A stretch of 31,214 nt of DNA from IMG/VR virus record IMGVR_UViG_3300034018_001973, positions 1 through 31,214 of that record. The stretch is one strand, 5' to 3'. This document shows positions 13,535-30,565 of the stretch, one piece after another (position 1 is the stretch's first letter; each line of letters starts with the position of its first letter). Position numbers and translations under genes: made by a program. The notes beneath the pieces are model-generated. The model searched no databases and was not told the DNA's origin. It was given only the letters and a program-made list of their open reading frames with translations. Source of the stretch: a virus.

Positions 13535-16500
13535 ATGGCAACAGCATCAATTAAAGTAAAACGCAGTGCAGTAGCTGGTCGTATACCAGCTACCACTGAT
13601 TTACAGTTAGGCGAAATAGCAATCAACACATATGATGGTGTTGCTTATATCAAGAAAAATGTCAACGGCACTGAAACCGTTGTTAATCTTGGTGGTACTG
13701 TAGAGCTTAGTCAAAACTTACAAAATCGTTACCAGTACACAGCTACTAGTAATCAAACAACTTTTGCAGCCGTTTATTTAGCGCCTTTTGTAGATGTTTT
13801 CTTGAATGGTGTTAAGTTAGTGGCTGGTGTCGACTATACTGCTACTAATGGTACTAGTATTGTACTAGCCACAGGTGCTACTGCTGGTAATATACTTGAT
13901 ATTGTTGCTTATACAACTTATACAGCAAATGCTAATTATGCCGACTTTGATAACGCAATTGTTGTTAATGCTCTTGGCTATACTCCTTATAATGCTACAA
14001 ATCCAAGTAATTATATTACTTTGGCACAAGCACGTTCAGGCATTTCAGCAAGTGGAAGTTTAGCTTATGATTCCTCAACTGGTGTGTTCAGCTATACAAC
14101 TCCCTCAACTACTGGAATTACCGAAGGTACGAATCTTTATTTTACAGATGCACGTGCACGTAGTGCATTAAGCGCCAGTACTGGTATTAGCTATAATTCT
14201 ACAACGGGTGCAATCAGTTCTACGATTACTCAATACACAGATGCTTTGGCACGTGGTGCGGTATCGGCAGCTGGAAGTTTAAGTTATAATTCTACTACTG
14301 GTGTGTTCAGCTATACAACACCGACTACTAGTGGTATTAGCGAAGGTACAAATCTTTACTTTACAGACGCACGTGCTCGAGCAGCACTAAGTGCTAGTAC
14401 TGGTATTAGTTATAATTCCTCAACGGGAGCTATCAGCTCAACAATTACTCAATACACAGATGCGCTTGCACGTGGAGCAATCTCTGTTACAGGTTCTGGT
14501 TCTTATGATTCTACAACTGGTGTTATTACAGTTACAGGAGGTGTTACAAGTGTAAACACTCGTACCGGTGCCGTTACTTTAACCAGTTCAGATGTTGGAT
14601 TAGGCTCAGTTGAAAATAAAAGCTCTGCTACTATTCGTGGTGAGTTGACCTCAGGAAACGTTACTGGTGCACTTGGTTTTACACCAGAAAATTCCGCAAA
14701 TCGTGGAGTTGCCAATGGTTATGCAAGTTTAAATAGTTCTGGGCAAATTCCTAGTGGTCAACTACCAAGTTATGTAGATGACGTACTTGAAGCCGCAAAC
14801 TTAGCCAGTTTTCCCACCACAGGCGAAACAGGCAAAATTTATGTTGCACTAGACACCAACAAAACTTATCGTTGGAGTGGTAGTGCTTATGTTTATATTA
14901 CTAGTGGAGCAGTTGATTCAGTAGCTGGTAAGACTGGTGTTGTTACATTAACTAATTCAGATGTTGGTTTAGGTAGTGTAGAAAATAAAAGTTCTGCTGC
15001 TATTCGTGGAGAAATTACTAGTTCGAATGTTACTACTGCTTTAGGATTTACACCATATAATGCAACTAATCCTAATGGTTATATAACTGGGATTACTAGC
15101 AGCAACGTTACTACAGCATTAGGTTTTACGCCATACAGCGCAGCTAACCCTAGCGGGTACATTACAAGCGCTGCTTTAGGTAGTTATTTGCCTTTGGCCG
15201 GCGGAACGCTGACAGGTGCGTTGAATGGAACTACTGTTGCTACAACTGGTAATATTGCGGTTGGTACTACGCTGTCAACTTTTATCAGTGGGTGGTACGC
15301 CCTTGAAGTTGGTAAGAACGCATCGATCCAAACTACAACCGCAGATAACTTGTTTGTTGGGTTCAATTCAGTTTTTAACTCAGCAGGTTATGTTAATAAA
15401 ACAGCAAATCAGGCGTCAGGCGGATTCTTTTTTGGCACTGACGGAAGCGCATCTATTCGCTACGCGGCAGCTCAAACAGCTGTAGGTACTGCAATTAGTT
15501 TTACAACTCCATTTACATTTGTGGGGGCTACCGGTGCATTTAATGCTTCCGGCGCAATTACCCAGAACGGCAATCAAGTCCTTCACGCAGGTAACTACAC
15601 AAGCTACAGTCCATCTCTGACTGGTTCCGGTGCAAGCGGCACTTGGGGTATTAGTATTAGTGGAACCGCAGAACGAACCAAAGGTGTTAGCACATCAGAC
15701 CCTTTTATTGGTACTGGCGGTTTGTGGGTTACGTCTGCAACTGGTTTAAATATTGCACGGAACGGCACAGCGTATCTTGGGCTTGATGCTGGCAACTACA
15801 CAAGCTACGTAAACCCAAAAGGTGGCGGATGGTACGGCTCTGGTTTACCCGGAAGTCGTTGGGGCGGATACTCCGTCAGTGGTGGTGAAATTTCATTTGG
15901 TGATGGTTTGCCCAACGCTGGTCAAATGGGTATTTTAGTAGACGGATGTTATGTAGCTGGTGAAAATAATGGTTTTTGGTCAATGGGCAGCGATAACACT
16001 TGGGGTTCGCGCCGTGGTATGTACTGGGATGGAACCTACTTAAACTTTACGACCAACAGTGCCACGGCTTACTTTACCAATGCGTTAATTGGTGGGAATC
16101 AAATTTTCCATGCAAGTAACTATACCGGCTACAACGGCATTGTTCGAGCCTTGGGTGCTCCATCCTCTAGCAATGACTGGAACAGCCTAGGTAATACATA
16201 CGCTAACAGCATAATCCAAGTTGACCCATCAAACTTTTCAAGTACAAGCAATGGCCCAACAGCAGCTTCGTACACTTACGGCACGTTGCTGAATTTTGCA
16301 ACTAACGCAAGTTCACAGTCGCAAATTTTTATCAGCCACGCTGGCAATGATTTGATTTTCCGTGGCGGTTGGAATGGCAATAGCTGGCAAACATGGAACA
16401 AGGTTCTAACTAATCAGAACTACAACAGCTACAGCCCAACATTAACGGGGGGTAATGCTTCTGGCACTTGGGGTATTAACGTAACAGGAACAGCCTCTGG

Positions 16501-19480
16501 TGAAAATCTTGGTACGGTAACAGCTAGAAGTGGATATACAGGCAGTGCAGTTACTCTAGCAAGTGGAGCAAATCACTATCAAGGCCATTTTTATTACGAC
16601 TCATACGATGCTGCAGGTAATCACTATCCTCACTTTACAGATGGTGGAAATGCTTCTGGTGTTAAAGTAAATTGGAGACTTTATACTGGCGGTACTAATT
16701 CAGTAACTCACTATTGGGGGACTGATACAGCTCAGTTTGCAACAAAATTAGAATCAACTGTACGTATTGACGCTCCAATTTTCTACGACAGGAATGACAC
16801 AGCCTATTATATTAACCCTAATGGTTCATCCCAAGTAAGCGGAAGTAATTTTTACTTTGGTTCAAAGGGTCAAATTTATGACGACGGTAATTTCCATATT
16901 GACGGAAGAAATTCTCCAGTATGGATTAACTCATTAAATAATGATGTAATATACTTAAATAGCCAAACTTCTGGTCACACTGTAATGGGTAACAGTGCAA
17001 GGTCGCCAATTTTTTACGACAGCAACGACACAGGGTATTACTTAAATCCTAATGGTGGTAGTCTTTTTAGTAGCCTAGCACTCAATGGTGATTTTAGAAC
17101 TGCTTTTGTAAGTGGCGCAGGCGGTTCGACTTTTGGTGCAAGTCACTACTCTATGGGTAAAGATATTGCCAATGGCGGTTGGTCACACCCGCACTACTCT
17201 GACTTAATCATTGGATACCATACCGGTATTCGTATTGGTGCTCATTATTCTGGTATTAGGTTTTACAACAACTCACCAACAACTGACGCAAACAATGACG
17301 GCAATGGTGATGCTGGTGAAGCGCTATTGATGACAATTGGTGGTTATGTTGGTACAGCAAATCATAGTGATGTGTATGTCAATAACCATCTTTTTGCTGG
17401 CGGATCGATGCGCTCGCCAATCTTCTACGACAACAACGACACAGCGTACTACTGCAACCCAAACAGTTTCTCGCAGCTTTCGTACGCCAATTTTAATGCT
17501 TCGCCAAACGGACGTACGTTGTCTCTTGGTGGCGATGAAACTGACCGGATTATTAACGACCCTGCCCGATCTAGTTTAGTAATTAATGCTACGTTGTATC
17601 CGCATCTGTACATTAACGCAACTGCAAACGCAAGTAATACTAACCACGGCCCTGTTTTTTCCATGACTGGAGTGTTGACAGCTGGCGGTTATAGAAGATG
17701 GGGTATGGGTATTGCTAATACCAACCCAGATTGCTTTAGTTGGGGTTATTACGATAACGAAACAAACCCTCATTATGGTGTAGGTGGTACTTTTGGATAT
17801 ACCGCCACCAATTCAAAAATGTGGTTAAACACTGGCGGTTCTTTATGGACTACTGGTGATATGCGTTCACCAATTTTCTATGACAGTAATGACACTGCAT
17901 ATTATGTGGATCCCAATTCGTCTGGAACTTGCTTTAGAGGTTATGGCACAGTAGATTCACGAGTTGGATTTGTTAGTAATGGTAACCCTTGGGGTACAGC
18001 TAATAGTGCATACTTCCCAAATGGTATTACAACAGCTGGTGGCACTAATTGGGTTTACGGTTTTACTTATATTGGCAATGCTCCTTCAAATGGATCAGGT
18101 CACGAGTTTGGTTCTGATGGTACTATGCGTAGTACAGGGTCGCATAGAGCATCTATATACTACGAGGACAGTAATACCTCATATTACGCAGATCCAAATG
18201 GTATGTCCTCAATGTTTGGTGTTGCTATCCGTGGTGATAATGACTCAACAGGAACGTCAAACCAACTCTTTTTGTGGGGTGCTGGCAACACTACAACTTC
18301 TTCAATTGGCTTTAAAGCTAGTGGTGGCGCTTTCCCTAACCCAACTGGTAATGGTGATGGTTATAACACTTACTTTACAATGGATAGCAACGGGCGTGGT
18401 TGGGTGTTTCGCAGAGGTGTTGGAGGCAGTGATTTCAGTTCATCATTTACTTCTGGTTGGATTACAAACAATGGTACTTGGCAATCTAATGGGTCAATGC
18501 GTGCACCAATCTTCTATGATAGTGATGATACCGCCTATTACATAGATCCATCAAATGGTGGCTTTAATTTAAGGGGTGGGTCAGGCAATCGTTTAACTTA
18601 TTTTACTAATGACAGTGGTATTATTATAAATAATGCTGAGGGTAGTGGGTCTAATGTAAGAGTAGGAGCGGCCTGGGGTCTTCCAGGAATTTATAATGGT
18701 GGCAATATCCATTTAATGTCTGAGGGTAGTGTAGTTTTCCGCACACAGAACATTGAACGGGGATACATGGATTCTAGTGCAAATCTGTTTGCGTACGGTT
18801 CTATGCGAGCACCAATTTTTTATGATCAAAACGATACAGCACGTTATGTAGACCCTAATAGTGAATCTAGACTTAGCACACTACGATTGTCTGGTGGACG
18901 TTTAATTATTAATGGTGGCGATCCAACTATTCAATTTGTAGATTCGGACCAACGTGGTGCTGCATTACACAACAATTCTAACTTATTTTATATCCTTAGT
19001 TCTAATGGTGTCGGTGGTGAAAGCTGGTCAACCAATAATGGTTACTGGCCTTTTTATATTGATTTAAATAGCAATGACTCTACCTTTGGCGGAAGCATCT
19101 GGGCGGCAGGAAATATTACTGCATATTCAGATGTAAAACTCAAAGAGAACATTCAAACAATTGATAGCGCACTTGAAAAAGTACTCAAGCTTCGTGGTGT
19201 ATACTATACACTTAAACGTGATGAAACTAAGACCAGAAAAATTGGTGTAGTTGCTCAGGAAGTCCAAGAAGTTCTTCCTGAAGTAGTTGTGCTACACAAA
19301 GATATTGAAGATGAAGAAGGTACTCTTGCAGTTGATTATGGCAATATCAGTGGTCTTTTAATTGAGGGTATGAAAGAGCAAAACCAAGAAGTAGTAGATT
19401 TAAAGTCTAAACTTAATCAACAACAATCAGAACTAGATGAGTTAAAATCACTAGTCAAATCCTTGTTAGCGAGCCGATAA
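13535..19480 (+). CDS. Giant tail fibre A with C-terminal S74 self-cleaving chaperone
   Basis: 1981 residues; AAGGGA lies upstream of the ATG. An attachment head (residues 1 to about 150, IKVKRSAVAGRIPATTDLQL) is followed by five 35-40-residue shaft repeats at about 161-336 (TEGTNLYFTDARARAALSAS type). Next come two copies of SDVGLGSVENKSSA and a series of GFTPYNA/GFTPYSA turns. From about 1080 onward, seven copies of an IFYDSNDTAYYxxPN motif separate modules of roughly 100 residues. The end is a Peptidase_S74 domain, the intramolecular chaperone of endosialidases and many fibres. Ser1865 and Lys1870 in AYSDVKLKEN match the Ser-Lys dyad, so cleavage just before Ser1865 would release a 117-residue trimerising chaperone with a C-terminal coiled coil (SKLNQQQSELDELKSLV). 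This is a probable receptor-binding fibre. The receptor cannot be read from sequence. Confidence 0.9.
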   Translation: MATASIKVKRSAVAGRIPATTDLQLGEIAINTYDGVAYIKKNVNGTETVVNLGGTVELSQNLQNRYQYTATSNQTTFAAVYLAPFVDVFLNGVKLVAGVDYTATNGTSIVLATGATAGNILDIVAYTTYTANANYADFDNAIVVNALGYTPYNATNPSNYITLAQARSGISASGSLAYDSSTGVFSYTTPSTTGITEGTNLYFTDARARSALSASTGISYNSTTGAISSTITQYTDALARGAVSAAGSLSYNSTTGVFSYTTPTTSGISEGTNLYFTDARARAALSASTGISYNSSTGAISSTITQYTDALARGAISVTGSGSYDSTTGVITVTGGVTSVNTRTGAVTLTSSDVGLGSVENKSSATIRGELTSGNVTGALGFTPENSANRGVANGYASLNSSGQIPSGQLPSYVDDVLEAANLASFPTTGETGKIYVALDTNKTYRWSGSAYVYITSGAVDSVAGKTGVVTLTNSDVGLGSVENKSSAAIRGEITSSNVTTALGFTPYNATNPNGYITGITSSNVTTALGFTPYSAANPSGYITSAALGSYLPLAGGTLTGALNGTTVATTGNIAVGTTLSTFISGWYALEVGKNASIQTTTADNLFVGFNSVFNSAGYVNKTANQASGGFFFGTDGSASIRYAAAQTAVGTAISFTTPFTFVGATGAFNASGAITQNGNQVLHAGNYTSYSPSLTGSGASGTWGISISGTAERTKGVSTSDPFIGTGGLWVTSATGLNIARNGTAYLGLDAGNYTSYVNPKGGGWYGSGLPGSRWGGYSVSGGEISFGDGLPNAGQMGILVDGCYVAGENNGFWSMGSDNTWGSRRGMYWDGTYLNFTTNSATAYFTNALIGGNQIFHASNYTGYNGIVRALGAPSSSNDWNSLGNTYANSIIQVDPSNFSSTSNGPTAASYTYGTLLNFATNASSQSQIFISHAGNDLIFRGGWNGNSWQTWNKVLTNQNYNSYSPTLTGGNASGTWGINVTGTASGENLGTVTARSGYTGSAVTLASGANHYQGHFYYDSYDAAGNHYPHFTDGGNASGVKVNWRLYTGGTNSVTHYWGTDTAQFATKLESTVRIDAPIFYDRNDTAYYINPNGSSQVSGSNFYFGSKGQIYDDGNFHIDGRNSPVWINSLNNDVIYLNSQTSGHTVMGNSARSPIFYDSNDTGYYLNPNGGSLFSSLALNGDFRTAFVSGAGGSTFGASHYSMGKDIANGGWSHPHYSDLIIGYHTGIRIGAHYSGIRFYNNSPTTDANNDGNGDAGEALLMTIGGYVGTANHSDVYVNNHLFAGGSMRSPIFYDNNDTAYYCNPNSFSQLSYANFNASPNGRTLSLGGDETDRIINDPARSSLVINATLYPHLYINATANASNTNHGPVFSMTGVLTAGGYRRWGMGIANTNPDCFSWGYYDNETNPHYGVGGTFGYTATNSKMWLNTGGSLWTTGDMRSPIFYDSNDTAYYVDPNSSGTCFRGYGTVDSRVGFVSNGNPWGTANSAYFPNGITTAGGTNWVYGFTYIGNAPSNGSGHEFGSDGTMRSTGSHRASIYYEDSNTSYYADPNGMSSMFGVAIRGDNDSTGTSNQLFLWGAGNTTTSSIGFKASGGAFPNPTGNGDGYNTYFTMDSNGRGWVFRRGVGGSDFSSSFTSGWITNNGTWQSNGSMRAPIFYDSDDTAYYIDPSNGGFNLRGGSGNRLTYFTNDSGIIINNAEGSGSNVRVGAAWGLPGIYNGGNIHLMSEGSVVFRTQNIERGYMDSSANLFAYGSMRAPIFYDQNDTARYVDPNSESRLSTLRLSGGRLIINGGDPTIQFVDSDQRGAALHNNSNLFYILSSNGVGGESWSTNNGYWPFYIDLNSNDSTFGGSIWAAGNITAYSDVKLKENIQTIDSALEKVLKLRGVYYTLKRDETKTRKIGVVAQEVQEVLPEVVVLHKDIEDEEGTLAVDYGNISGLLIEGMKEQNQEVVDLKSKLNQQQSELDELKSLVKSLLASR
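14015..14541 (+). repeat. Shaft repeats near the N-terminus of fibre A
   Basis: Five consecutive repeats of about 35-40 residues. The recurring parts are TEGTNLYFTDARARxALSAS or TQYTDALARGAxS, then GISYNSSTGAISSTI or SLSYNSTTGVFSYTTPT. The first and last copies are degenerate. Closely related repeats occur in fibre B at 20516-20998, so the two fibres share shaft-building units. Confidence 0.85.
16772..18861 (+). repeat. Seven IFYD-type motif repeats in fibre A
   Basis: Copies of a roughly 17-residue motif with the pattern (R/D)(A/S)PIFYDxNDTxYYxxPN start near 16772, 17000, 17411, 17863, 18147, 18499 and 18806. The spacing is uneven, about 230-450 bases. The copy at 18147 is the most divergent (RASIYYEDSNTSYYADPN). 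The motif marks the joints between variable modules. Confidence 0.88.
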
Positions 19481-19494
19481 GCTCGCTAACTTTT
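19465..19494 (+). terminator. Perfect hairpin overlapping the fibre A stop codon
   Basis: GTTAGCGAGC (19465-19474) pairs perfectly with GCTCGCTAAC (19481-19490); the loop CGATAA carries the last codon and the stop of fibre A. Four T follow. It has a stable 10-pair stem but a short T run, so it may be a partial terminator, letting some transcripts into the genes behind, or an RNA processing or stability element. Confidence 0.65.
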
Positions 19495-19518
19495 AAATAG
19501 CCAATTTTGGAGAAAATA

Positions 19519-19887
19519 ATGGCAATTACTTATACATGGAAAATCACTTCTTTAAAAACCAAAACCGAAAACGGTAATGAAGGTGCAGTTGTTCAAACTT
19601 ACTGGACCAAAACTGGAGTAGACGAAGACAATCACGAAGGTACGTTTTCAGGAGCAACTCCTTTTAGTTCACTTAACATGCCTGAAGGCTCTACTTTTAC
19701 CCCGTTTCAAGACCTAACAGAAGAAATCGTACTAAACTGGATTAAAGCAGTGGTTGTGGGTGGTTACGAAGAACACGTTAATGCTCAAATTCAAAAGCAA
19801 ATTGACGAAAAGCACAACCCCATCACAGAAGCTACAATGCCCTGGGCACCTCCTTCTGCTCCAGCTCCTGCCCCAACAACACCTTAA
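19519..19887 (+). CDS. Fibre-associated small protein 1 (DUF7936-like)
   Basis: 122 residues from the ATG at 19519, chosen because GGAG at 19509-19512 sits at proper distance; an upstream in-frame TTG at 19507 would overlap that site. The protein starts AITYTWKITSLKTKTENGNE, contains VVQTYWTKTGVDEDNHEGTF and TPFQDLTEEIVLNWIKAVVV, then an amphipathic helix (EEHVNAQIQKQIDEKHNP), and ends TMPWAP plus a proline/alanine tail. This matches a small phage protein family I recall as DUF7936; the family name is unverified. It and the next gene are paralogs and lie between two S74 fibres. A fibre-assembly or minor virion role fits the position but is inference. Confidence 0.78.
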   Translation: MAITYTWKITSLKTKTENGNEGAVVQTYWTKTGVDEDNHEGTFSGATPFSSLNMPEGSTFTPFQDLTEEIVLNWIKAVVVGGYEEHVNAQIQKQIDEKHNPITEATMPWAPPSAPAPAPTTP

Positions 19888-19896
19888 AGGGTACTT

Positions 19897-20265
19897 ATGA
19901 CTGAACAAGTTACACCTAATTTTACCGCTACATTTACGATTAAACCAACAGGTATTCGTACAGCTACTGTTGGCAATCGTACAAATGTTGTTAAACAAGT
20001 AGAGTGGACAATGGTCGGTGAAGAGGCTGAGCAAAAATTTGAATTACCACAAACCACAACTCTTGAAGATCCCAACGGCCAAGAATTTATTGAGTTAGCC
20101 AACTTAACTGAAGCTAATGTTGTTGCTTGGATTCAAGCAACCGACACACGTATTCCTGGCATCAAAGCACACATTCAATTTGTGTTAGATAAGGAAGTGG
20201 CCAAAAGCGCTTTAGCTACCACAGCAATGCCTTGGGCACCAGTGGTTGAAACACCAACACCTTAA
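19897..20265 (+). CDS. Fibre-associated small protein 2, paralog of the preceding gene
   Basis: 122 residues, with AAAGGG just behind the previous stop as ribosome binding site. The layout repeats that of the preceding gene: an N-terminal strand pair (FTATFTIKPTGIRTATVGNR), VVKQVEWTMVGEEAEQKF, a LANLTEANVVAWIQ segment matching DLTEEIVLNWI, a helix (IKAHIQFVLDKEVAKSA), then TAMPWAP and a proline-threonine tail. The PWAP ending is shared by both genes. Sequence between them has diverged a lot, so the duplication is old. The function is unknown; one partner per fibre is an attractive but unproven idea. Confidence 0.75.
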   Translation: MTEQVTPNFTATFTIKPTGIRTATVGNRTNVVKQVEWTMVGEEAEQKFELPQTTTLEDPNGQEFIELANLTEANVVAWIQATDTRIPGIKAHIQFVLDKEVAKSALATTAMPWAPVVETPTP

Positions 20266-20332
20266 ACCAAAACAAAAATGCCTTTGTTGCTGCAATGGGC
20301 CGCAGTTTTAAAAATACAAAAAGGGGTAGTCA

Positions 20333-23300
20333 ATGAGTACACCACGTAATTTATCAAAATTAGCAGAAAACACAAACTCTAGTGGTGTATTAGGTATTGC
20401 AAGTGGCGGTACTGGTGGAACCACCACTACCGCCGCCAAAACTGCATTGGGTTTGCACGAAGTGGCCTCTACCGGAAGCTACACAGATTTAGACAACAAG
20501 CCTACCACAACGCAAATCACCGAAGGCACTAACCTTTACTTTACAGATGCGCGGGTACGTGCCGCAATCAGTGCCAGTGGAAGTTTAAGCTATAACTCTA
20601 GCACAGGTGTGTTAAGTTATACAACTCCTAGTACAACTGGTATTACTGAAGGTACTAACTTATACTACACAGATTCACGTGCCCGTGCTGCTTTTAGTGC
20701 AGGCACTGGCATGAGTTATAATAGTTCTACTGGTGTGATCACAACCACAATCACACAGTATACTGATGCGCTAGCACGAGCTGCTGTAAGTGCAGGCACT
20801 GGATTAAGTTACAATAGCTCTACTGGTGTGTTTACAAATACGATCACACAGTATACTGATAGTTTAGCACGTGCTGCTGTAAGTGCATCAGGAAGTTTAA
20901 GCTACAACTCCACCACAGGTGTGTTCAGTTATACAACTCCCACTACTAGTGGAATTGCCGAAGGCACTAACTTATACTACACAGACGCTCGTGCAATTTC
21001 AGCTAATACTTCAGCAATTGCCACAGCAAAATCCGAAGCTATCAGCACAGCTGCCACAGATGCTACTGCTAAAGCCAACGCGGCTCAAGCAGCTGCTATC
21101 GCTGCCGTTACTAATGGAGCAGGTGCTGCGTTTGATACGCTCAAAGAAATTCAAGATGCAATGGCAACGGATCAAGAACTTGCCGCTGCTATTGCTGGAC
21201 TTACTATTGGCAATGCCACACAAACTATAAGCACAGGCACTGGGTTGTCAGGCGGTGGATCATTTACTGCCAATCAAACTTCACCAAGCACAGTTACCCT
21301 CGGCTTAGCTACTGCAGGTACTGCAGGAACTTATACCAAAGTAACTACAGATGCTTATGGTCGTGTTACTAGTGGCACTACTCTATCCAGCGGTGATATT
21401 CCTTCGTTATCAGGTTTATATTTACCACTAACTGGCGGAACGCTAACTGGTGGACTAATTATTAACGCTGGTGGTGGCTACCCAATTCAAGCCACCTCAA
21501 ATCAGCGTTATCAAATTGGCATTAAAAACACATCAGCATCAGCACAAACACAAGGCTGGTGGTTTGCTCACGACACTGGTGGCAACTTAGTTGTTCACGC
21601 AGACTCAAATGGTGACAAAGTTTCTATTGCAAGCAGTGGCTTTGGTTTGCAAGTAGGTGTAGCATCAACATACGACAATCCTGGTGGATGGAATGCAAAC
21701 GTTGTTGCATCTGGCACACACCACGCTCGCGTTCGTGTTAAAGGAACTTCTCACAACAGCAGCGGCGACAACGAAGCTTACTTGTGGGTTGATAATACTT
21801 TGGGGGGACATAGAACCGGGTTGTATAGTTCAACCAATTTTAACATCAACGTACCTAATTTGTATGAGTCAGGTAGTCGAGTTCTAAACTCCAGCAACTA
21901 CAACAACTACTCTCCAACACTAACTGGTGGAAATGCAAGTGGTACTTGGAATATTAATATTACAGGGTCTGCTGGTTCTGCTGGCTCGGTTGACTACAAC
22001 AATCTAACAAACAAAGCTGGCGGTACAGGCACATACACAACCAGCGGCGACTACCGCGCACCAATTTTCTACGACAGCAACGACACAACTTACTATTTAG
22101 ACCCAAATTCAACTACTGCTGCACTTCTTGCAGGTAGTATAGGTGTTGGTACTACCAGCCCAGTTAATTCCGCTTGGGGGACTGCTAGTAGTACTAAACA
22201 GATAACAGTTTATGGGTCAGCCTACGGCGTAGTCAATATCCGCGGTGATAGCACAACAGCTACTCACTATTCAATGGGTGTAGGCGATGGACGCTTTTAC
22301 GCTGCATATGACAACGTTGCAGCAATCCACAGGCTTGTTTTTTTCGGTAGCTTCACAGGTCTTAACTATGGAAGTTCTCCTGCTTACAATTTACATTTAG
22401 GTGGTACTGGACTCGCAACTGATGATTGGCGTGCTCCAATTTTCTACGACAGTAACGACACAAGTTATTACGTAAACCCGAATGGTGATTCCAGACTTTC
22501 CGGATTAAGTGTGGGTAGAGGGCCCGGAGGTTCAAACGCTGGTAACCTATATATCCAAGGAAATCACAATTGGCGCTGGATCGCAGGCTTCGCACCTGAT
22601 TATGGTGTTGGTAACGGTTTTGGTCTGTATTCTGATACCAATAGTGCATACTACCTGTCTTTGTCAACGGCAGGCAATTGGTGGTTTGGTGTAAACGACC
22701 ACAGTTCATCATACAGGGTCAGCATCAACGGCACTGGGTACGCATCAAGTGATTTACGCGCACCAATCTTCTACGACAGTAATGACACTTCTTGGTATGT
22801 CGACCCACATACAAATAGTAGACTAAATCAACTTGGAGTTGGTTCTAACAATACTGGTTATACATTTTATAACAACGGTACATCGTATTTAAATGGCGCT
22901 GTCACCATCGACGACACAGCTGCATTTACTGCGGGAAATCAATTGCAGTTTTATACCAGCGCTGGTAGTTTACGTGGGTATATAAATGTAACTGACACGG
23001 ACGACAATCATTTCCAGATTGCCACTTCAGGTGGAGAGGACATCGTATTTAAAGACTCCGGGTTGTCTGGAACAAGAAATCTTGTTATACGTGGCTCAAA
23101 TGCAGGTACTGAAGCCTATGGTTCAATGCGTTCGCCCATTTTCTATGACAGCAACGACACTGGATTCTATGTAGACCCTAATAGCACTTCACGGCTAAAT
23201 GGCGTTAGTGTGTACACTAGCGGTTCTTGGGGTTTTGTAAACGCAGCAAGAGGTAGCTATTACGGCTACTCAAGCAGCTACGGCACAGTTATTTATGGTG

Positions 23301-25648
23301 CTACAAGCGGAAGCATCACACCATGCTTTAACGTTGACCCCATTAATAACCCAAGTGGTTCTTTCAACGGCAATGGCGGCGAAGTCATGTTCCGTAATGG
23401 CGTGCAGTTCATTTCGCCAAACAGCTCCAATAACGGGTACAACAACTATTTTGTTTTGCAAGATGGGTATGCTGCAGCAAATAACAGTTTCCGCGCACCA
23501 ATCTTCTACGACAGCAACAACACAGGTTATTACGTAGACCCAAATGGCAACAGTGCCTTAACTACTGCAATATTTTATGTAAATGGGTCTTCTGAAATAA
23601 CGCTTACGTCAGCTGGCACAAACGCTTCTATGATAAAAGCGGGCTCTGGCGATGAGTTGTACATTGGCGGTAATAACACTTGGCAAATGCGGTTTAGTGG
23701 CGCTAATGTTTTAATGGATAACGGTGGTTATTTGTTAAATGGCGAATCTATTAGAGCACCAATCTTCTACGACACTAATAACACAGCTTATTACATAGAC
23801 CCAGCAGCTACTGTTTCAGGCTCTTTTGCAGGGTTTGTCGGTATTGGCGGCAATTATGGCAGCGATGATGGTGGCTGGGCGGCGCGACTGAATGTAGGTG
23901 GAACTCCTCACGCACGGCTTGATGTGCGAGCCGCCGGTGACGGAATTATCACCACTATGTACAGCCACAACGGTCAAAACCGAGGTTTTGTCGGCACGAT
24001 GTCGAATCACCGACTGGCGCTGGCTGTAAACGGCAGTGAAGTTCAATCGATTTTGAGTAGCTACTCAGAATCAATAGGTTCGTACCGAGCACCAATTTTC
24101 TACGACAGCAACGACACAGCCTATTACACCGACCCAAATAACACATCTAGAACAGCGGATATCCATACCAATCGTATTGGTATAGGACAAGGTGTAAACG
24201 CTTCTTGGCCGTTAATTGTTTCTGGTAATGCGTACTTAAATGCAAATGGCTATGGCCAAGCCGAAGGTTCATGGCGAGCGCCAATTTTCTACGACAGCAG
24301 CGACACTGGTTATTATGATGACCCCAACGGAACGGGTAATATAAGTTCGTTAAATATTCGCGGGACTCTAAGATTGTTTAGCAGTGAAGCTCTTCAAATC
24401 ATAGCCCCCAATCAAGCTCGTCAACGGGCAGATAGTCGAGACGAAAGCTCAGCTTCAAGAACACACTGGTATGGCTTGCTTACCGATGGCAATACAAGTA
24501 ATTTTCGCCATGCTTGGTACGACGGTTCAGCGTACTTTAATGTAACTGCTAGCGGCGGTGAAGTATCGTTTAATCGTGTTGGCGGCGGTGGATATGTTTC
24601 ATCAAATGAATCTTTACGTGCCCCAATTTTCTATGATCTTAACAACACATCCTACTATTGCAACCCAGATAATATTTCGGTTTTATGGGGATTAACGCTT
24701 GCGGGTGGTTCTTATTTCAGGCCACAAAACTGGATTCAGATGGATGGGTCATATGGAATCTATTGGCCAAACCACTACGGCGCACACCTTTACCCAAATG
24801 CTGGTTCTACGTACACACAGCTGCAGATAGACGGCAGCAAAAATTCGTACAGCGGCATGTATATTTCCCACAGCGCTGTTAATGGGATGATGTACGACGG
24901 TGGCGGTAACGGTGGTGTTTACCGCGAAGCTCAAGGCAGATGGTACTTTTATCACCACGTTGGCAACAACTGCATGGGGGTTGGAACGTCTAGTACAAGT
25001 TCTGCTTTTGGTATTTATGTTGTTAAAGGCGGTTATTTTGACGGTCGTGTTGATGCCACCATTCATTACGATGCAAGTGACACAGGGTACTACTTAGACC
25101 CAAACTCTACAACAGCCTTAAGAACCGTTGGCTCTTGGAGAGCAGATTCGGCTTCTTGGGATGGTGAATTTTCAGGCAAGATTCAATACCACAGCAGTAA
25201 TTGGTACTTCCAATACGCGGGTAGTATGCTTTTCCGCAATTCTGGCGGCAGTAATGTATTCACTGTTGACCAAAGTGGCAATGCTGTTGCTAGCGGCAAC
25301 GTTACTGCTTACTCGGATGCTCGCCTCAAAGAAAACGTCGTAACAATTGATTCGGCTTTAGACAAAGTTTTAAAATTGCGCGGTGTCTATTACAACAAAA
25401 TTGGCAACCCAGAACGCCGTGTGGGTGTCATTGCGCAAGAAACTGAAACGGTGTTGCCAGAAGTTGTTCGTTCGGTTTCAGACACCAACCCATCAACTGG
25501 AGAGACTCAAGAGTTGTTGGCGGTGGATTATGGAAACATAACAGGACTGCTTATCGAAGCTATAAAAGAACAAGACACGGAGATCACAGATTTACGAAAT
25601 TGCGTAGCCGAATTAAAGGCTCTTATTAACAAATTGATTAAGGAATAA
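20333..25648 (+). CDS. Giant tail fibre B with C-terminal S74 self-cleaving chaperone
   Basis: 1771 residues; AAGGGG precedes the ATG. The head differs from fibre A and carries a GIASGGTGGTTTTAAKTALG motif common at the base of phage fibres. Shaft repeats follow at about 62-222 (TEGTNLYFTDARVRAAISAS type), then an alanine-rich coiled-coil helix at about 223-292. Next are a YLPLTGGTLTGG turn and ten IFYDSNDTxYYxDPN motifs from about residue 575 to 1592, separating modules of roughly 60-145 residues. The C-terminus is a Peptidase_S74 domain: Ser1661 and Lys1666 in AYSDARLKEN fit the catalytic dyad, so a 111-residue chaperone should be cut off after trimer folding. It is similar to fibre A in its end and shaft but different in its modules, so it is likely a second receptor-binding fibre. 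Confidence 0.9.
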   Translation: MSTPRNLSKLAENTNSSGVLGIASGGTGGTTTTAAKTALGLHEVASTGSYTDLDNKPTTTQITEGTNLYFTDARVRAAISASGSLSYNSSTGVLSYTTPSTTGITEGTNLYYTDSRARAAFSAGTGMSYNSSTGVITTTITQYTDALARAAVSAGTGLSYNSSTGVFTNTITQYTDSLARAAVSASGSLSYNSTTGVFSYTTPTTSGIAEGTNLYYTDARAISANTSAIATAKSEAISTAATDATAKANAAQAAAIAAVTNGAGAAFDTLKEIQDAMATDQELAAAIAGLTIGNATQTISTGTGLSGGGSFTANQTSPSTVTLGLATAGTAGTYTKVTTDAYGRVTSGTTLSSGDIPSLSGLYLPLTGGTLTGGLIINAGGGYPIQATSNQRYQIGIKNTSASAQTQGWWFAHDTGGNLVVHADSNGDKVSIASSGFGLQVGVASTYDNPGGWNANVVASGTHHARVRVKGTSHNSSGDNEAYLWVDNTLGGHRTGLYSSTNFNINVPNLYESGSRVLNSSNYNNYSPTLTGGNASGTWNINITGSAGSAGSVDYNNLTNKAGGTGTYTTSGDYRAPIFYDSNDTTYYLDPNSTTAALLAGSIGVGTTSPVNSAWGTASSTKQITVYGSAYGVVNIRGDSTTATHYSMGVGDGRFYAAYDNVAAIHRLVFFGSFTGLNYGSSPAYNLHLGGTGLATDDWRAPIFYDSNDTSYYVNPNGDSRLSGLSVGRGPGGSNAGNLYIQGNHNWRWIAGFAPDYGVGNGFGLYSDTNSAYYLSLSTAGNWWFGVNDHSSSYRVSINGTGYASSDLRAPIFYDSNDTSWYVDPHTNSRLNQLGVGSNNTGYTFYNNGTSYLNGAVTIDDTAAFTAGNQLQFYTSAGSLRGYINVTDTDDNHFQIATSGGEDIVFKDSGLSGTRNLVIRGSNAGTEAYGSMRSPIFYDSNDTGFYVDPNSTSRLNGVSVYTSGSWGFVNAARGSYYGYSSSYGTVIYGATSGSITPCFNVDPINNPSGSFNGNGGEVMFRNGVQFISPNSSNNGYNNYFVLQDGYAAANNSFRAPIFYDSNNTGYYVDPNGNSALTTAIFYVNGSSEITLTSAGTNASMIKAGSGDELYIGGNNTWQMRFSGANVLMDNGGYLLNGESIRAPIFYDTNNTAYYIDPAATVSGSFAGFVGIGGNYGSDDGGWAARLNVGGTPHARLDVRAAGDGIITTMYSHNGQNRGFVGTMSNHRLALAVNGSEVQSILSSYSESIGSYRAPIFYDSNDTAYYTDPNNTSRTADIHTNRIGIGQGVNASWPLIVSGNAYLNANGYGQAEGSWRAPIFYDSSDTGYYDDPNGTGNISSLNIRGTLRLFSSEALQIIAPNQARQRADSRDESSASRTHWYGLLTDGNTSNFRHAWYDGSAYFNVTASGGEVSFNRVGGGGYVSSNESLRAPIFYDLNNTSYYCNPDNISVLWGLTLAGGSYFRPQNWIQMDGSYGIYWPNHYGAHLYPNAGSTYTQLQIDGSKNSYSGMYISHSAVNGMMYDGGGNGGVYREAQGRWYFYHHVGNNCMGVGTSSTSSAFGIYVVKGGYFDGRVDATIHYDASDTGYYLDPNSTTALRTVGSWRADSASWDGEFSGKIQYHSSNWYFQYAGSMLFRNSGGSNVFTVDQSGNAVASGNVTAYSDARLKENVVTIDSALDKVLKLRGVYYNKIGNPERRVGVIAQETETVLPEVVRSVSDTNPSTGETQELLAVDYGNITGLLIEAIKEQDTEITDLRNCVAELKALINKLIKE
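20516..20998 (+). repeat. Shaft repeats near the N-terminus of fibre B
   Basis: Four full repeats and a fifth partial one, built from TEGTNLYFTDARVRAAISAS or TQYTDALARAAVSAG and LSYNSSTGVxSYTT. They are homologous to 14015-14541 in fibre A and end at the start of the alanine-rich helix. Confidence 0.85.
22055..25108 (+). repeat. Ten IFYD-type motif repeats in fibre B
   Basis: Copies begin near 22055, 22430, 22757, 23129, 23492, 23753, 24086, 24275, 24617 and 25052. The common DNA is CACCAATTTTCTACGACAGC followed by AACGACAC, almost unchanged in most copies, also at third codon positions. The last copy is divergent (DATIHYDASDTGYYLDPN). Confidence 0.9.
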
Positions 25649-26954: not shown

Positions 26955-27217
26955 AAATCCTAGCACTATCACTAATTTTACTACTCAGTGGGTGTTCTAC
27001 AACTGTGCCAGTTACAGCAAAATTTCCAGAAGCACCAGGCACATTAGTGCAAGAACCTTGCCAACAATTAAAAAAGCTTGAAGACACGGCTAAATTATCG
27101 GATGTGGCAAAAACTGTAACAGTTAATTATTCAGAATACTATTTGTGTGCTGTTAAGCTAGAAGCATGGCAACGTTGGTATCGTGAACAAAAAACAATAT
27201 ATGAAGGACTAAAATAA
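26951..27217 (+). CDS. Rz1-like outer-membrane spanin lipoprotein (o-spanin)
   Basis: 88 residues from the ATG at 26951; the same frame extends upstream to 26894, but that would bury the signal peptide. Residues 1-14 form a hydrophobic signal followed by the lipobox LLSGC, with Cys15 as the lipidated residue. The mature part of about 74 residues has two more cysteines (EPCQQL, YYLCAV) and a WQRWYREQK end. A lipoprotein directly overlapping an i-spanin and followed by an endolysin is the classic spanin pair. It is longer than lambda Rz1. It ends with TAATG, the stop sharing one base with the endolysin start. Confidence 0.85.
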   Translation: MKILALSLILLLSGCSTTVPVTAKFPEAPGTLVQEPCQQLKKLEDTAKLSDVAKTVTVNYSEYYLCAVKLEAWQRWYREQKTIYEGLK

Positions 27218-27831
27218 TGGAATTACGATTAGATCAACTAAAACAAATTATTCCAAAAAATCCATATGTAGAACATTGGCATCGTGCATTAAAACAATTG
27301 TTACCTGAGTACGAAATCAATACTCCGCAACGCATGGCAGCTTTTTTAGCACAATGTGCGCACGAATCGGGCGGTTTCACCGCTATCAAAGAAAATTTAA
27401 ATTATCGCGCAGTTACACTCCGCAAGATTTTTCCTAAATATTTTCCCACAGACGAAATGGCACAACAGTTTGCCAACAAGCCAGAAAAGATTGCTAATCG
27501 TGTCTATGGTAATCGCATGGGCAATGGCGACGAGGCCTCAGGCGATGGTTATCGTTACTGCGGTCGTGGACTAATTCAGCTAACAGGCAAAGACAACTAC
27601 TTTTGGTTTGCTGCTAGTATTGACCTAACACCTGAACAAGCATCAGAATACATGGAAACCTTTGAAGGAGCAGCGCAGTCAGCATGCTGGTTCTGGGAAA
27701 CCAACAATCTTAATCAGTGGGCAGATAAAGGCGATATTGTAACCCTTACAAAACGTATCAATGGCGGTACAATTGGACTAGCCGATAGACAAAAGCATTA
27801 TGAACATGCTTTACACATTTTTGGAGCCTAA
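27217..27831 (+). CDS. GH19-type endolysin
   Basis: 204 residues, a single glycoside hydrolase family 19 (chitinase-like) domain that cuts the sugar backbone of peptidoglycan. The catalytic helix contains AFLAQCAHESGGF, with His49-Glu50 as the expected catalytic site. A second acid, Glu59, lies in IKENLNYR. The core motif YCGRGLIQLTGKDNY is at about 114-128, and ACWFWETNNLNQWAD and KRINGGTIGLADRQ complete the family pattern. There is no signal peptide, so it needs a holin to reach the wall. It starts within the o-spanin stop (TAATG). Length is normal for single-domain phage GH19 endolysins. Confidence 0.93.
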   Translation: MELRLDQLKQIIPKNPYVEHWHRALKQLLPEYEINTPQRMAAFLAQCAHESGGFTAIKENLNYRAVTLRKIFPKYFPTDEMAQQFANKPEKIANRVYGNRMGNGDEASGDGYRYCGRGLIQLTGKDNYFWFAASIDLTPEQASEYMETFEGAAQSACWFWETNNLNQWADKGDIVTLTKRINGGTIGLADRQKHYEHALHIFGA

Positions 27832-29878: not shown

Positions 29879-30565
29879 ATGGCAAGTGGTAAAAGAGCAA
29901 GACGCGACAATGTAATTCAATTGGAACGCAACCCAATAGAGTATGGATTTACAGATGTAAAACCATTAAACTTTATACAGGCGGAATATCTAAGAGCAAT
30001 TCAATCTAATCAAATAGTATTTGGTGTAGGAAGTGCTGGAACAGGTAAGACGTATGTAGCAGCAACATATGCTGCGGGAGAACTCTTTCATAGACGTATT
30101 CAGAAGATTATTCTGACTAGACCCAACGTAGAAACAGGACGTGGGCTAGGATTTTTACCAGGTACACTAGAGGAGAAATATGCTCCATATCTAGAACCTT
30201 TTGATAACGTGTTTACTCGTAGCCTTGGAAAAGGTTTTTATGAGTACGCATTAAAAGCAAAAACTATTGAGCCTAAACCACTGGGCTTTATGCGAGGTGC
30301 AACATTTGATAATTGCATCGTTCTTTTAGATGAAGCACAAAATGCCACACGAGAAGAAATGAAAATGCTGTTATCACGAATTGGTAAAAATTGTAAAATG
30401 ATTATTTCAGGAGATGTAGATCAAGCAGATATTCCAGATTCAGGACTATCTGATGCAATTAATAGGTTAGACCGAATTCCAGATATTGAAGTTGTCAGAT
30501 TTATGGATGACGATATTGTTAGGTCTAAAATGTGTAAACAAATTATTTTAGCTTATAGAGATTAA
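29879..30565 (+). CDS. phoH: PhoH-like P-loop ATPase
   Basis: 228 residues, with AAGGAA upstream of the ATG. The P-loop NTPase motif GVGSAGTGKTYVA gives Walker A at about 51-58 with Lys57. Walker B is CIVLLDEAQNAT, with Asp151-Glu152, and the later GDVDQADIPDSG (178-189) matches the conserved GDxxQxD motif of the family. The length is the usual short phage form, lacking the extra domains of bacterial PhoH2. PhoH-like genes are common in phages and were first linked to phosphate stress in E. coli, but their role in phage infection is not settled; helicase or RNA-handling functions have been suggested. The gene has its own promoter and is followed 2 bases later by another gene. Confidence 0.93.
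   Translation: MASGKRARRDNVIQLERNPIEYGFTDVKPLNFIQAEYLRAIQSNQIVFGVGSAGTGKTYVAATYAAGELFHRRIQKIILTRPNVETGRGLGFLPGTLEEKYAPYLEPFDNVFTRSLGKGFYEYALKAKTIEPKPLGFMRGATFDNCIVLLDEAQNATREEMKMLLSRIGKNCKMIISGDVDQADIPDSGLSDAINRLDRIPDIEVVRFMDDDIVRSKMCKQIILAYRD

What the first reader, a model, noticed from the sequence alone, without database searches (positions are those of the whole stretch)
16772..25108. Seventeen IFYD motif copies act as DNA-level homology blocks between fibre modules
Seven copies in fibre A and ten in fibre B mark module borders, and many copies share nearly the same DNA (CACCAATTTTCTACGACAGC then AACGACAC), including third codon positions, while the sequence between copies is unlike. The pattern fits recombination at short conserved tracts to swap, add or delete receptor modules within a fibre, between the two fibres and with other phages. 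Similar motifs exist in other phage fibres; their conservation at DNA level here is the part worth testing.
Basis: partly seen in the sequence, partly recalled or inferred. Interest (0 to 1): 0.7.

Follow-up and report, generated by a model that had tools for sequence, protein, structure and literature searches.

The report
Tail-fibre modules swapped at shared motifs
Two giant tail-fibre genes of an uncultured bacterial virus are chains of interchangeable blocks separated by one short repeated motif, and related viruses carry the same blocks in other orders with many of the joins lying in the motif, so it marks a main place where these viruses trade pieces of their probable host-binding fibres.

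Summary
In detail: 17 IFYD-type motifs (7 in fibre A, 10 in fibre B) separate dissimilar modules. DNA-level sharing of the core P-IFYDSNDT is real in fibre B (codon identity 0.68 against 0.43 expected from codon usage and context) and between A and B, but absent among A's own copies.

The central inference is borne out. Among 317 non-redundant motif-bearing fibre ORFs from IMG/VR, ends of shared DNA blocks (>=85% identity) in the motif region lie at the motif in 277 of 398 cases; shifted motifs give 104. Seven of fibre B's nine modules recur in other contigs, in other orders. In L003 against L005/L008, a single-module gain or loss, the join lies inside the motif core.

Not supported: special synonymous constraint (orthologous motifs are, if anything, less conserved synonymously than their flanks) and exchange within one fibre or between this window's two fibres. 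Homology-directed recombination is the likeliest mechanism, but inferred: most motif pairs share under 23 bp of exact identity, and about half of all block ends lie elsewhere. T-even adhesin swapping is the precedent: a new variant of a known kind.

The parts
13535..19480 (+). Fibre A, 1981 aa, 7 motif copies, C-terminal Peptidase_S74 chaperone domain
   Evidence: PF13884, E 2.7e-15; PHROG long tail fiber distal subunit / tail fiber
20333..25648 (+). Fibre B, 1771 aa, 10 motif copies, C-terminal Peptidase_S74 chaperone domain
   Evidence: (PF13884, E 2.9e-14)
16772..16825 (+). IFYD motif A1 (APIFYDRNDTAYYINPNG)
   Evidence: block end +22 against L208
17003..17056 (+). IFYD motif A2
   Evidence: block 16776-17042 shared with L208 ends +33
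17414..17467 (+). IFYD motif A3
   Evidence: L110 block ends +31, L208 block starts +18
17867..17920 (+). IFYD motif A4
   Evidence: L208 block ends -13, but there L208's ORF runs off its contig, so this is not a breakpoint
18149..18202 (+). IFYD motif A5, degenerate (IYYEDSNTSYY)
18503..18556 (+). IFYD motif A6
18809..18862 (+). IFYD motif A7
22058..22111 (+). IFYD motif B1
   Evidence: blocks start -5 (L008) and -9 (L377)
22433..22486 (+). IFYD motif B2
   Evidence: L005 block ends +43, L003 block starts -9; change-point estimate -4 against L005
22760..22813 (+). IFYD motif B3
   Evidence: L003 block ends +22
23132..23185 (+). IFYD motif B4
   Evidence: L001 block starts -9
23495..23548 (+). 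IFYD motif B5
   Evidence: blocks shared with L002, L003, L004, L005, L006, L008 start at -10 to -24
23756..23809 (+). IFYD motif B6
   Evidence: the same six blocks end at +41 to +43; L001 block starts -6
24089..24142 (+). IFYD motif B7; 30-bp exact tract shared with B1
   Evidence: L001 block ends +40
24278..24331 (+). IFYD motif B8
24620..24673 (+). IFYD motif B9; the nearest exchange borders lie +87 to +145 nt downstream, not in the motif
25055..25108 (+). IFYD motif B10, degenerate (IHYDASDTGYY)
   Evidence: L010 block ends +41
22112..22432 (+). Module B1 (family f96), 99% DNA identity to the first module of L005
22487..22759 (+). Module B2 (f94), 90% to the module gained or lost in L003 relative to L005/L008
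23186..23494 (+). Module B4 (f93), 85% to L001 module 2
23549..23755 (+). Module B5 (f1), 92-97% to modules of L002, L003, L004, L005, L006, L008
23810..24088 (+). Module B6 (f92), 92% to L001 module 1; order relative to f93 reversed in L001
24332..24619 (+). Module B8 (f97), 83% to L007 module 3
24674..25054 (+). Module B9 (f4), 80-89% to modules of L001, L003, L005, L010
16826..17002 (+). Module A1 (f20), 91% to L208 module 3
19127..19288 (+). Peptidase_S74 intramolecular chaperone domain of fibre A
25313..25471 (+). Peptidase_S74 intramolecular chaperone domain of fibre B
21895..21990 (+). SPTLTGGNASGTW element of fibre B, candidate second type of exchange border
   Evidence: element at 21920; left end of the L005 block at 21895

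Best explanation
The IFYD motif is a repeated ~16-residue joint between interchangeable modules of long, S74-chaperone-terminated tail fibres. Being conserved in protein over ~50 nt, it gives modules similar DNA on both sides. During co-infection, phage or host recombination (most likely annealing at short, partly mismatched homology) pairs non-corresponding motif copies and crosses over at scattered points inside the motif; the join stays in frame and leaves a whole motif, so single modules are replaced, inserted or deleted without breaking the fibre. Shown here: the joints, the concentration of block ends at them, modules in changed order and number among relatives, and joins resolved inside the motif. 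Inferred: homologous recombination as the agent, co-infection as the setting, receptor change as the effect.
For: Block ends at the motif (-45..+60 nt of IFYD) within the motif region: enlarged set, >=85% identity, 277 of 398 ends in 122 ORFs against 104 (sd 11, max 142 of 1000) with motif positions shifted; at >=90%, 63 of 82 left and 58 of 76 right ends against 0.25-0.27 expected; first set at >=90%, 36 of 37 and 27 of 33. Identity profile at junctions: 41 left junctions go from 0.27-0.45 before -12 to 0.76-0.90 after +30, 31 right junctions from 0.80-0.93 before the motif to 0.27-0.41 beyond +54. Estimated change points fall in -12..+54 in 28 of 41 and 24 of 31; on simulated chimeras the estimator's medians were within 3 nt and its 5-95% ranges within about 16 nt of the truth. 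Base-level case: L003 against L008 and L005. Shared and reordered modules of window B. Motif pairs with >=23 bp exact identity: 2.6% of 3527 within ORFs, 1.9% of 4550 non-orthologous pairs between ORFs sharing a module, 0.3% of 18181 between unlinked ORFs. Codon excess in fibre B.
Against: Over whole ORFs only 121 of 246 block ends at >=90% lie at the motif (null 13%), 118 of 246 at none of the three elements tested. Of 19 window-B blocks in the motif region, 11 run from motif to motif, 8 have an end elsewhere. The near-perfect share of the first set fell in the enlarged set (against 48). The newest swap (L305/L372) has one border at or just after the motif and the other at a different element. 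Median exact tract between motif copies is 9 bp, under the 23-27 bp quoted for Red-beta in PMC3945230. In L003 the two motifs around the extra module differ from each other at many sites, and one position on each side of the join must have changed independently. No RecT, ERF or Rad52-family match in 12 related fragments; RecA-like in 1, AAA_24 in 3, 2 over the cut-off. Donor test negative (24 of 37 against 0.615 in control).
Confidence: 0.66

Rival explanations
1. The motif is only a structural joint. Recombination, homologous or illegitimate, falls anywhere, and selection keeps the joins at module borders because others misfold. DNA similarity is a by-product of protein conservation.
For: No synonymous excess between fibres of different contigs (0.454 vs 0.466) or among A's copies; most motif pairs share <15 bp exactly; core codons of orthologous motifs are not extra conserved; block ends also occur away from the motif.
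Against: Joins are resolved inside the motif with both parental halves in register, which illegitimate joining plus selection would give less readily; >=23-bp tracts are about 6 times as frequent between fibres that share modules as between unlinked ones (1.9% vs 0.3%), though shared ancestry adds to that; fibre B's z of 7.8.
Confidence: 0.26
2. Codon-level constraint (translation speed, RNA structure) keeps the motif DNA similar.
For: Context preferences at the motif over all fibres, e.g. TTC at F 432 seen against 217 expected and GAC at +12 305 against 169.
Against: With codon context in the null, no excess between contigs; orthologous motifs have lower synonymous identity than matched flanking codons, -0.087, 95% interval -0.146 to -0.028, though only 5 of 9 independent groups are negative.
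Confidence: 0.05
3. A site-specific recombinase acts at the motif.
For: Repeated near-identical tracts at borders.
Against: Change points spread over ~60 nt, not one position; no recombinase among the 15 window proteins scanned against PHROGs. Inversion was not tested: comparisons were plus strand only.
Confidence: 0.03
4. Metagenome assembly joined unrelated strains at the repeat, making false mosaics.
For: All mosaic cases are metagenome contigs; the one cultured phage found with the motif, Synechococcus phage DSL-LC03, was not compared with relatives.
Against: Module f1 occurs at >=92% in six contigs of five metagenomes; four of them share one context (f18-f1-f10), L002, L004 and the window have others. 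L003, L005 and L008 come from three metagenomes, and L005 and L008 agree with each other at the join. Exact tracts of <=30 bp are shorter than usual assembly k-mers (general knowledge).
Confidence: 0.05

Closest known systems
T-even distal tail fibre / gp38 adhesin swapping at conserved motifs (Tetart, Desplats and Krisch 1998, J Mol Biol 282:543)
   Same: Short conserved motifs alternate with variable segments in a receptor-binding protein and serve as exchange points (only the paper's title was seen, in reference lists; four hypervariable segments and five glycine-rich motifs of gp38 are described in passages of PMC12529663).
   Different: Different motif (P-IFYDSNDT-YY-DP), different protein (very long S74-terminated fibres, up to 14 copies per ORF), modules of about 100 aa, no gp38 match among the families found.
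Contemporary domain mosaicism of phage receptor-binding proteins (PMC10684548)
   Same: Ongoing shuffling of protein fragments in tail fibres (abstract and passages seen).
   Different: That work is at protein-domain level in the passages seen; here one repeated joint and base-level joins are found.
Flexible gene modules of cryoconite phages (PMC7468147)
   Same: Near-identical genomes with tail-fibre variants exchanged by recombination (abstract and passages seen).
   Different: No repeated joint motif appears in the passages seen.
Relaxed homologous recombination by Rad52-like phage recombinases (PMC3945230)
   Same: A mechanism that could act on short, diverged tracts; quotes minimal pairing segments of 31-34 bp for RecA and 23-27 for Red-beta (passages seen).
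   Different: No such recombinase was identified in the 12 fragments examined here.

Membership tests
T-even-type motif-guided adhesin swapping | Conserved motifs alternate with dissimilar segments | tested here: met
T-even-type motif-guided adhesin swapping | Exchange breakpoints concentrated at the motifs in related phages | tested here: met
T-even-type motif-guided adhesin swapping | Protein is a gp38-type adhesin with glycine-rich motifs | tested here: not met
   Pfam and PHROG hits are S74 fibres, none named gp38; the motif is not glycine-rich
T-even-type motif-guided adhesin swapping | Swap changes receptor specificity | not testable with these tools
   uncultured virus
S74-terminated long tail fibre | C-terminal Peptidase_S74 domain | tested here: met
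   both fibres over the curated cut-off
S74-terminated long tail fibre | Similarity to long tail fibre families | tested here: met
   (phrog_11011, phrog_21722); one search finds solved structures (6f45_A, 7dc3_A) only over the chaperone end
S74-terminated long tail fibre | Trimeric fibrous fold of the motif region | tested here: inconclusive
   AlphaFold2 of module B5 with both motifs gave mean pLDDT 42
Site-specific fibre switching (Gin/Min type) | One fixed crossover point | tested here: not met
Site-specific fibre switching (Gin/Min type) | Inverted repeats and invertible segment | not tested
   no inverted-repeat search was run; comparisons were plus strand only
Diversity-generating retroelement | Reverse transcriptase with template and variable repeats | not tested
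   variation seen is block replacement; no search for a reverse transcriptase was run

The most novel reading that the evidence does not exclude
The motif is a selected recombination-promoting tract: its DNA is homogenised among copies of a fibre and among phages that trade modules, by ectopic exchange at the motif, so that the fibre works as an open-ended array into which a shared pool of environmental host-recognition modules can be plugged. Lower synonymous identity of orthologous motifs than of their flanks, with higher identity among non-orthologous copies in some fibres, is what such turnover would leave.
Probability: 0.16. Interest if true: 0.8.

Novelty: new variant of a known kind. 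Interest (0 to 1): 0.57.

Why it matters
It gives a nucleotide-resolved picture of how uncultured phages reshuffle probable host-recognition modules: one repeated joint, single-module gains or losses, replacements and reorderings, and a pool of modules shared by contigs from different metagenomes. The joint can be searched for as a marker of exchangeable modules, and it makes a question testable that is hard to reach in nature: whether conserved joints in receptor-binding proteins are kept for structure alone or also because their DNA helps recombination.

Tried and rejected
Naive synonymous test was kept only as a first look: one search showed codon-context preferences at the motif over all fibres, so searches used a context-aware null and a placebo on matched dipeptides outside the motif. 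On the placebo the null under-predicts (observed 0.529 against 0.502 within ORFs, 0.545 against 0.486 between linked ORFs; unlinked 0.451 against 0.464), so the family-wide within-ORF excess (0.586 against 0.503) is small once corrected, and the linked-ORF excess (0.567 against 0.484) is barely above its placebo. The linked placebo is itself raised by shared sequence. Fibre B's own excess (0.678 against 0.432; placebo 0.464 against 0.427) stands.

Own-gene copies as donors of changed motifs: no signal. Structure of module B5: too poor to use, no fold search made. Vibrio T4-like fibres as cultured examples: in the four regions checked no copy of the motif pattern. Recombinase search: RecT, ERF, Rad52 0 of 12; RecA 1 of 12; AAA_24 3 of 12, 2 over cut-off; all fragments. 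L232/L233, listed by the script as a replacement, is rather a continuously homologous stretch with a degenerate motif. Of five indel triads, two share L003 and L285/L349 is clear only on its left side: at most four independent events, three clear on both sides. The 22 replacement pairs were not all inspected; L305/L372, L232/L233 and L340/L376 were. Module pairs by context: at >=90%, 42 of 212 pairs differ on at least one testable side, 85 are the same on both (many near-identical contigs); at 80-90%, 77 of 110 differ. 'Differing neighbours' for 65 of 69 module families counts unshared single modules and fibre ends as different, so it is an upper figure. Change points outside -12..+54 (20 of 72) include gap effects of an ungapped comparison and real non-motif borders. 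Rows dropped before counts: eight loci of the window itself and six same-contig duplicates; contained or >=90% overlapping ORFs. Motif ORFs were selected by a motif pattern, so protein conservation of the motif in that set is partly by construction. The genome-contig scan (23 stretches) was not followed up. On this recheck the confidence was lowered by 0.02 and the structural-joint and assembly rivals raised accordingly, because only 11 of 19 window-B blocks run from motif to motif and DSL-LC03 was never compared with relatives.
Full report
What is there. The window is a 31,214-base IMG/VR virus fragment; megablast of its first 25 kb found no match among 50,697 phage records. It holds a central-tail-fibre-J-like protein at 2-1432 and an endolysin at 27217-27831, phoH at 29879-30565, and two very long fibre genes. 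Fibre A (13535-19480) and fibre B (20333-25648) each end in a Peptidase_S74 chaperone domain and match long-tail-fibre PHROGs. The motif A/S-P-I-F-Y-D-S-N-D-T-x-Y-Y-x-D-P-N occurs 7 times in A and 10 times in B, two of the 17 being degenerate.

Is the DNA more alike than the protein requires? Pooled over the 17 copies, yes: 0.599 against 0.446 over the core, with no clear excess in neighbouring positions. The same columns show strong codon-context preferences over all fibres (TTC at F, GAC at +12), so a null with codon context was built from 186 non-redundant motif-bearing ORFs. Under it fibre B's ten copies share codons at 0.678 against 0.432 (z 7.8, the highest of 92 ORFs with at least four copies), A against B 0.582 against 0.442, and A's seven copies 0.471 against 0.478, that is nothing. 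Thirty-one of the 92 ORFs have z above 2, none below -2. Random pairs from different contigs show no excess (0.454 against 0.466). A placebo on matched dipeptides outside the motif shows that the null under-predicts a little (0.529 against 0.502 within ORFs); this leaves fibre B's excess standing and makes the family-wide one (0.586 against 0.503) small.

Is it held by constraint? Where both neighbouring modules are shared between two fibres, the motif lies in orthologous DNA. There the core has lower synonymous identity than the same amino acids in the flanks, by 0.087 (bootstrap over 9 independent groups: -0.146 to -0.028; 5 of 9 groups negative; 43 comparisons of 26 ORF pairs). A codon-level constraint would give the opposite sign. 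Turnover by exchange at the motif would give this sign, but a search for own-gene donors found no signal (24 of 37 against 0.615 in control).

Are modules shuffled, and where? Seven of nine window-B modules have relatives in other contigs, best matches 83-99% in DNA. Their orders differ: window B reads f96 f94 - f93 f1 f92 - f97 f4; L005 f96 f9 f42 f17 f18 f1 f10 f4; L003 - f17 f94 f18 f1 f10 f4; L001 f92 f93 - f41 f4, with f92 and f93 in the reverse order ('-' is a module without a relative in two or more ORFs). The blocks shared with L002, L003, L004, L005, L006 and L008 start 10 to 24 bases before the fifth B motif and end 41 to 43 bases into the sixth; the L001 blocks are 23129-23541 and 23756-24135, again from just before one motif to +40 of the next. 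Of 19 window-B blocks at >=80% in the motif region, 11 run from motif to motif; the other 8 have at least one end elsewhere, six of them at a border 87-145 bases after the ninth motif.

Over the first set at >=90% identity, 36 of 37 left ends and 27 of 33 right ends lie at a motif (null 0.24 and 0.28). In the enlarged set of 317 non-redundant ORFs the figures are 63 of 82 and 58 of 76 at >=90%, and 277 of 398 at >=85% against 104 (sd 11) when motif positions are shifted within each ORF. These counts concern ends within 150 bases of the span from first to last motif, and 'at the motif' means about 45 bases before to 45-60 after the I codon. Over whole ORFs the motif takes 121 of 246 ends at >=90% against 13% expected. 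The motif is thus the main border, not the only one.

Where in the motif? At 41 left junctions identity is 0.27-0.45 before -12 and 0.76-0.90 after +30; at 31 right junctions it is 0.80-0.93 before the motif and 0.27-0.41 beyond +54. Estimated change points fall within -12..+54 in 28 of 41 and 24 of 31; on simulated chimeras the estimator's medians were within 3 bases of the truth and its 5-95% ranges within about 16, so the spread across the motif speaks against one fixed crossover point. The clearest single event is L003, which has module f94 (the relative of window module B2) between f17 and f18, where L008 and L005 have f17 directly joined to f18. The single motif of L008 equals L003's upstream motif through +7 and again at +9 to +14, and equals L003's downstream motif from +12 on, apart from one difference at +24; the downstream motif differs from it at +11 and at four places before that. 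One later point change, at +8 or +11, has to be allowed. The join therefore lies between about +7 and +15, inside the codons for Y-D-S-N of the core. Five such triads exist in the enlarged set, at most four independent events, three clear on both sides. In L305 and L372, loci 99.7-99.9% identical outside the change, a segment of about 1 kb is replaced by one of about 0.8 kb: the first difference is at +23 of an IFYD motif, similarity is lost by about +96, and the right border lies in a different repeated element, TLTGVSIDGNAAT.

How it probably works. A motif of ~50 nt conserved in protein supplies similar DNA on both sides of each module. Pairs of motif copies that share at least 23 bp exactly make up 2.6% of 3527 within ORFs, 1.9% of 4550 non-orthologous pairs between ORFs that share a module and 0.3% of 18181 between unlinked ORFs. 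Minimal pairing segments quoted in PMC3945230 (passages) are 31-34 bp for RecA and 23-27 bp for Red-beta, and recombination by such phage enzymes is described there as tolerant of divergence. So exchange by annealing at a few well-matched copies at a time is plausible. No RecT, ERF or Rad52-family match was found in 12 related fragments; a RecA-like protein was found in one and AAA_24 (the Sak4-like label is recalled) in three, two over the cut-off. The rival, that joins fall anywhere and only those at a structural joint survive, is not excluded. It predicts no dependence on nucleotide identity; the assay in the next steps would decide.

The border role and the exchange with other phages are borne out. 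Exchange within one fibre or between A and B of this window is not seen: one module pair within any ORF passed the cut (>=72% over >=60% of length) among 1074 modules, and no window module matched another window module in DNA. Movement between fibre types is suggested by L208, whose N-terminal part is 89.6% identical in protein to that of L005's fibre over 720 residues, while 120 residues before its first motif and module f20 match window A (80% in protein, 91% in DNA). The expected special synonymous conservation is fibre-specific, not general.

What is known. Swapping of T-even adhesin specificity by recombination at conserved motifs is in print (title of Tetart et al. 1998 seen in reference lists; the gp38 layout in passages of PMC12529663). 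Domain mosaicism of receptor-binding proteins and recombination-driven flexible modules in metagenomes are also described (PMC10684548 and PMC7468147, abstracts and passages). The strings IFYDSNDT and FYDSNNT occur in no paper of the held open-access library, so I found no description of this joint there; subscription papers and other spellings are not covered. Of 50,697 GenBank phage records, a 34-residue motif query matched one, Synechococcus phage DSL-LC03, which has at least four copies. Hence: new variant of a known kind.

Noticed in passing
15617, 16442 (fibre A) and 21920 (fibre B); L305/L372 fibre ORFs near 3157/2974: A second repeated element, SPTLTGGNASGTW / TLTGVSIDGNAAT, also borders exchanged blocks; block ends near it are about twice as frequent as expected but few (5 of 246 at >=90%, null 1.1%; 37 of 1711 at >=80%, null 1.2%).
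   Followed up: partly
24713-24771: A recurrent exchange border 87-145 nt after the ninth B motif, in the WIQMDGSYGIYWPN stretch, shared by L001, L007, L010, L011, L012 and L013 blocks.
   Followed up: partly
14126, 14345 (A); 20525, 20651, 20963 (B): GTNLYFTDARAR repeats in the N-terminal halves of both fibres; the regions before the first motif of A and B are 64% identical in protein over 156 aligned residues.
   Followed up: no
5011-10731: A 1906-aa protein with many similar repeats (SVNEGG...TITLTTNQSG...TINDTS) and no PHROG match at E 0.001.
   Followed up: no
motif copies in 186 fibre ORFs: Strong context-dependent codon choice at the motif over all fibres: TTC at F before Y (432 seen, 217 expected), GAC at D before P (305 seen, 169 expected); naive synonymous tests on such motifs mislead.
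   Followed up: partly
L007, L010 and others: Some fibres replace DP after the motif by DGA or similar, a variant of the joint.
   Followed up: no
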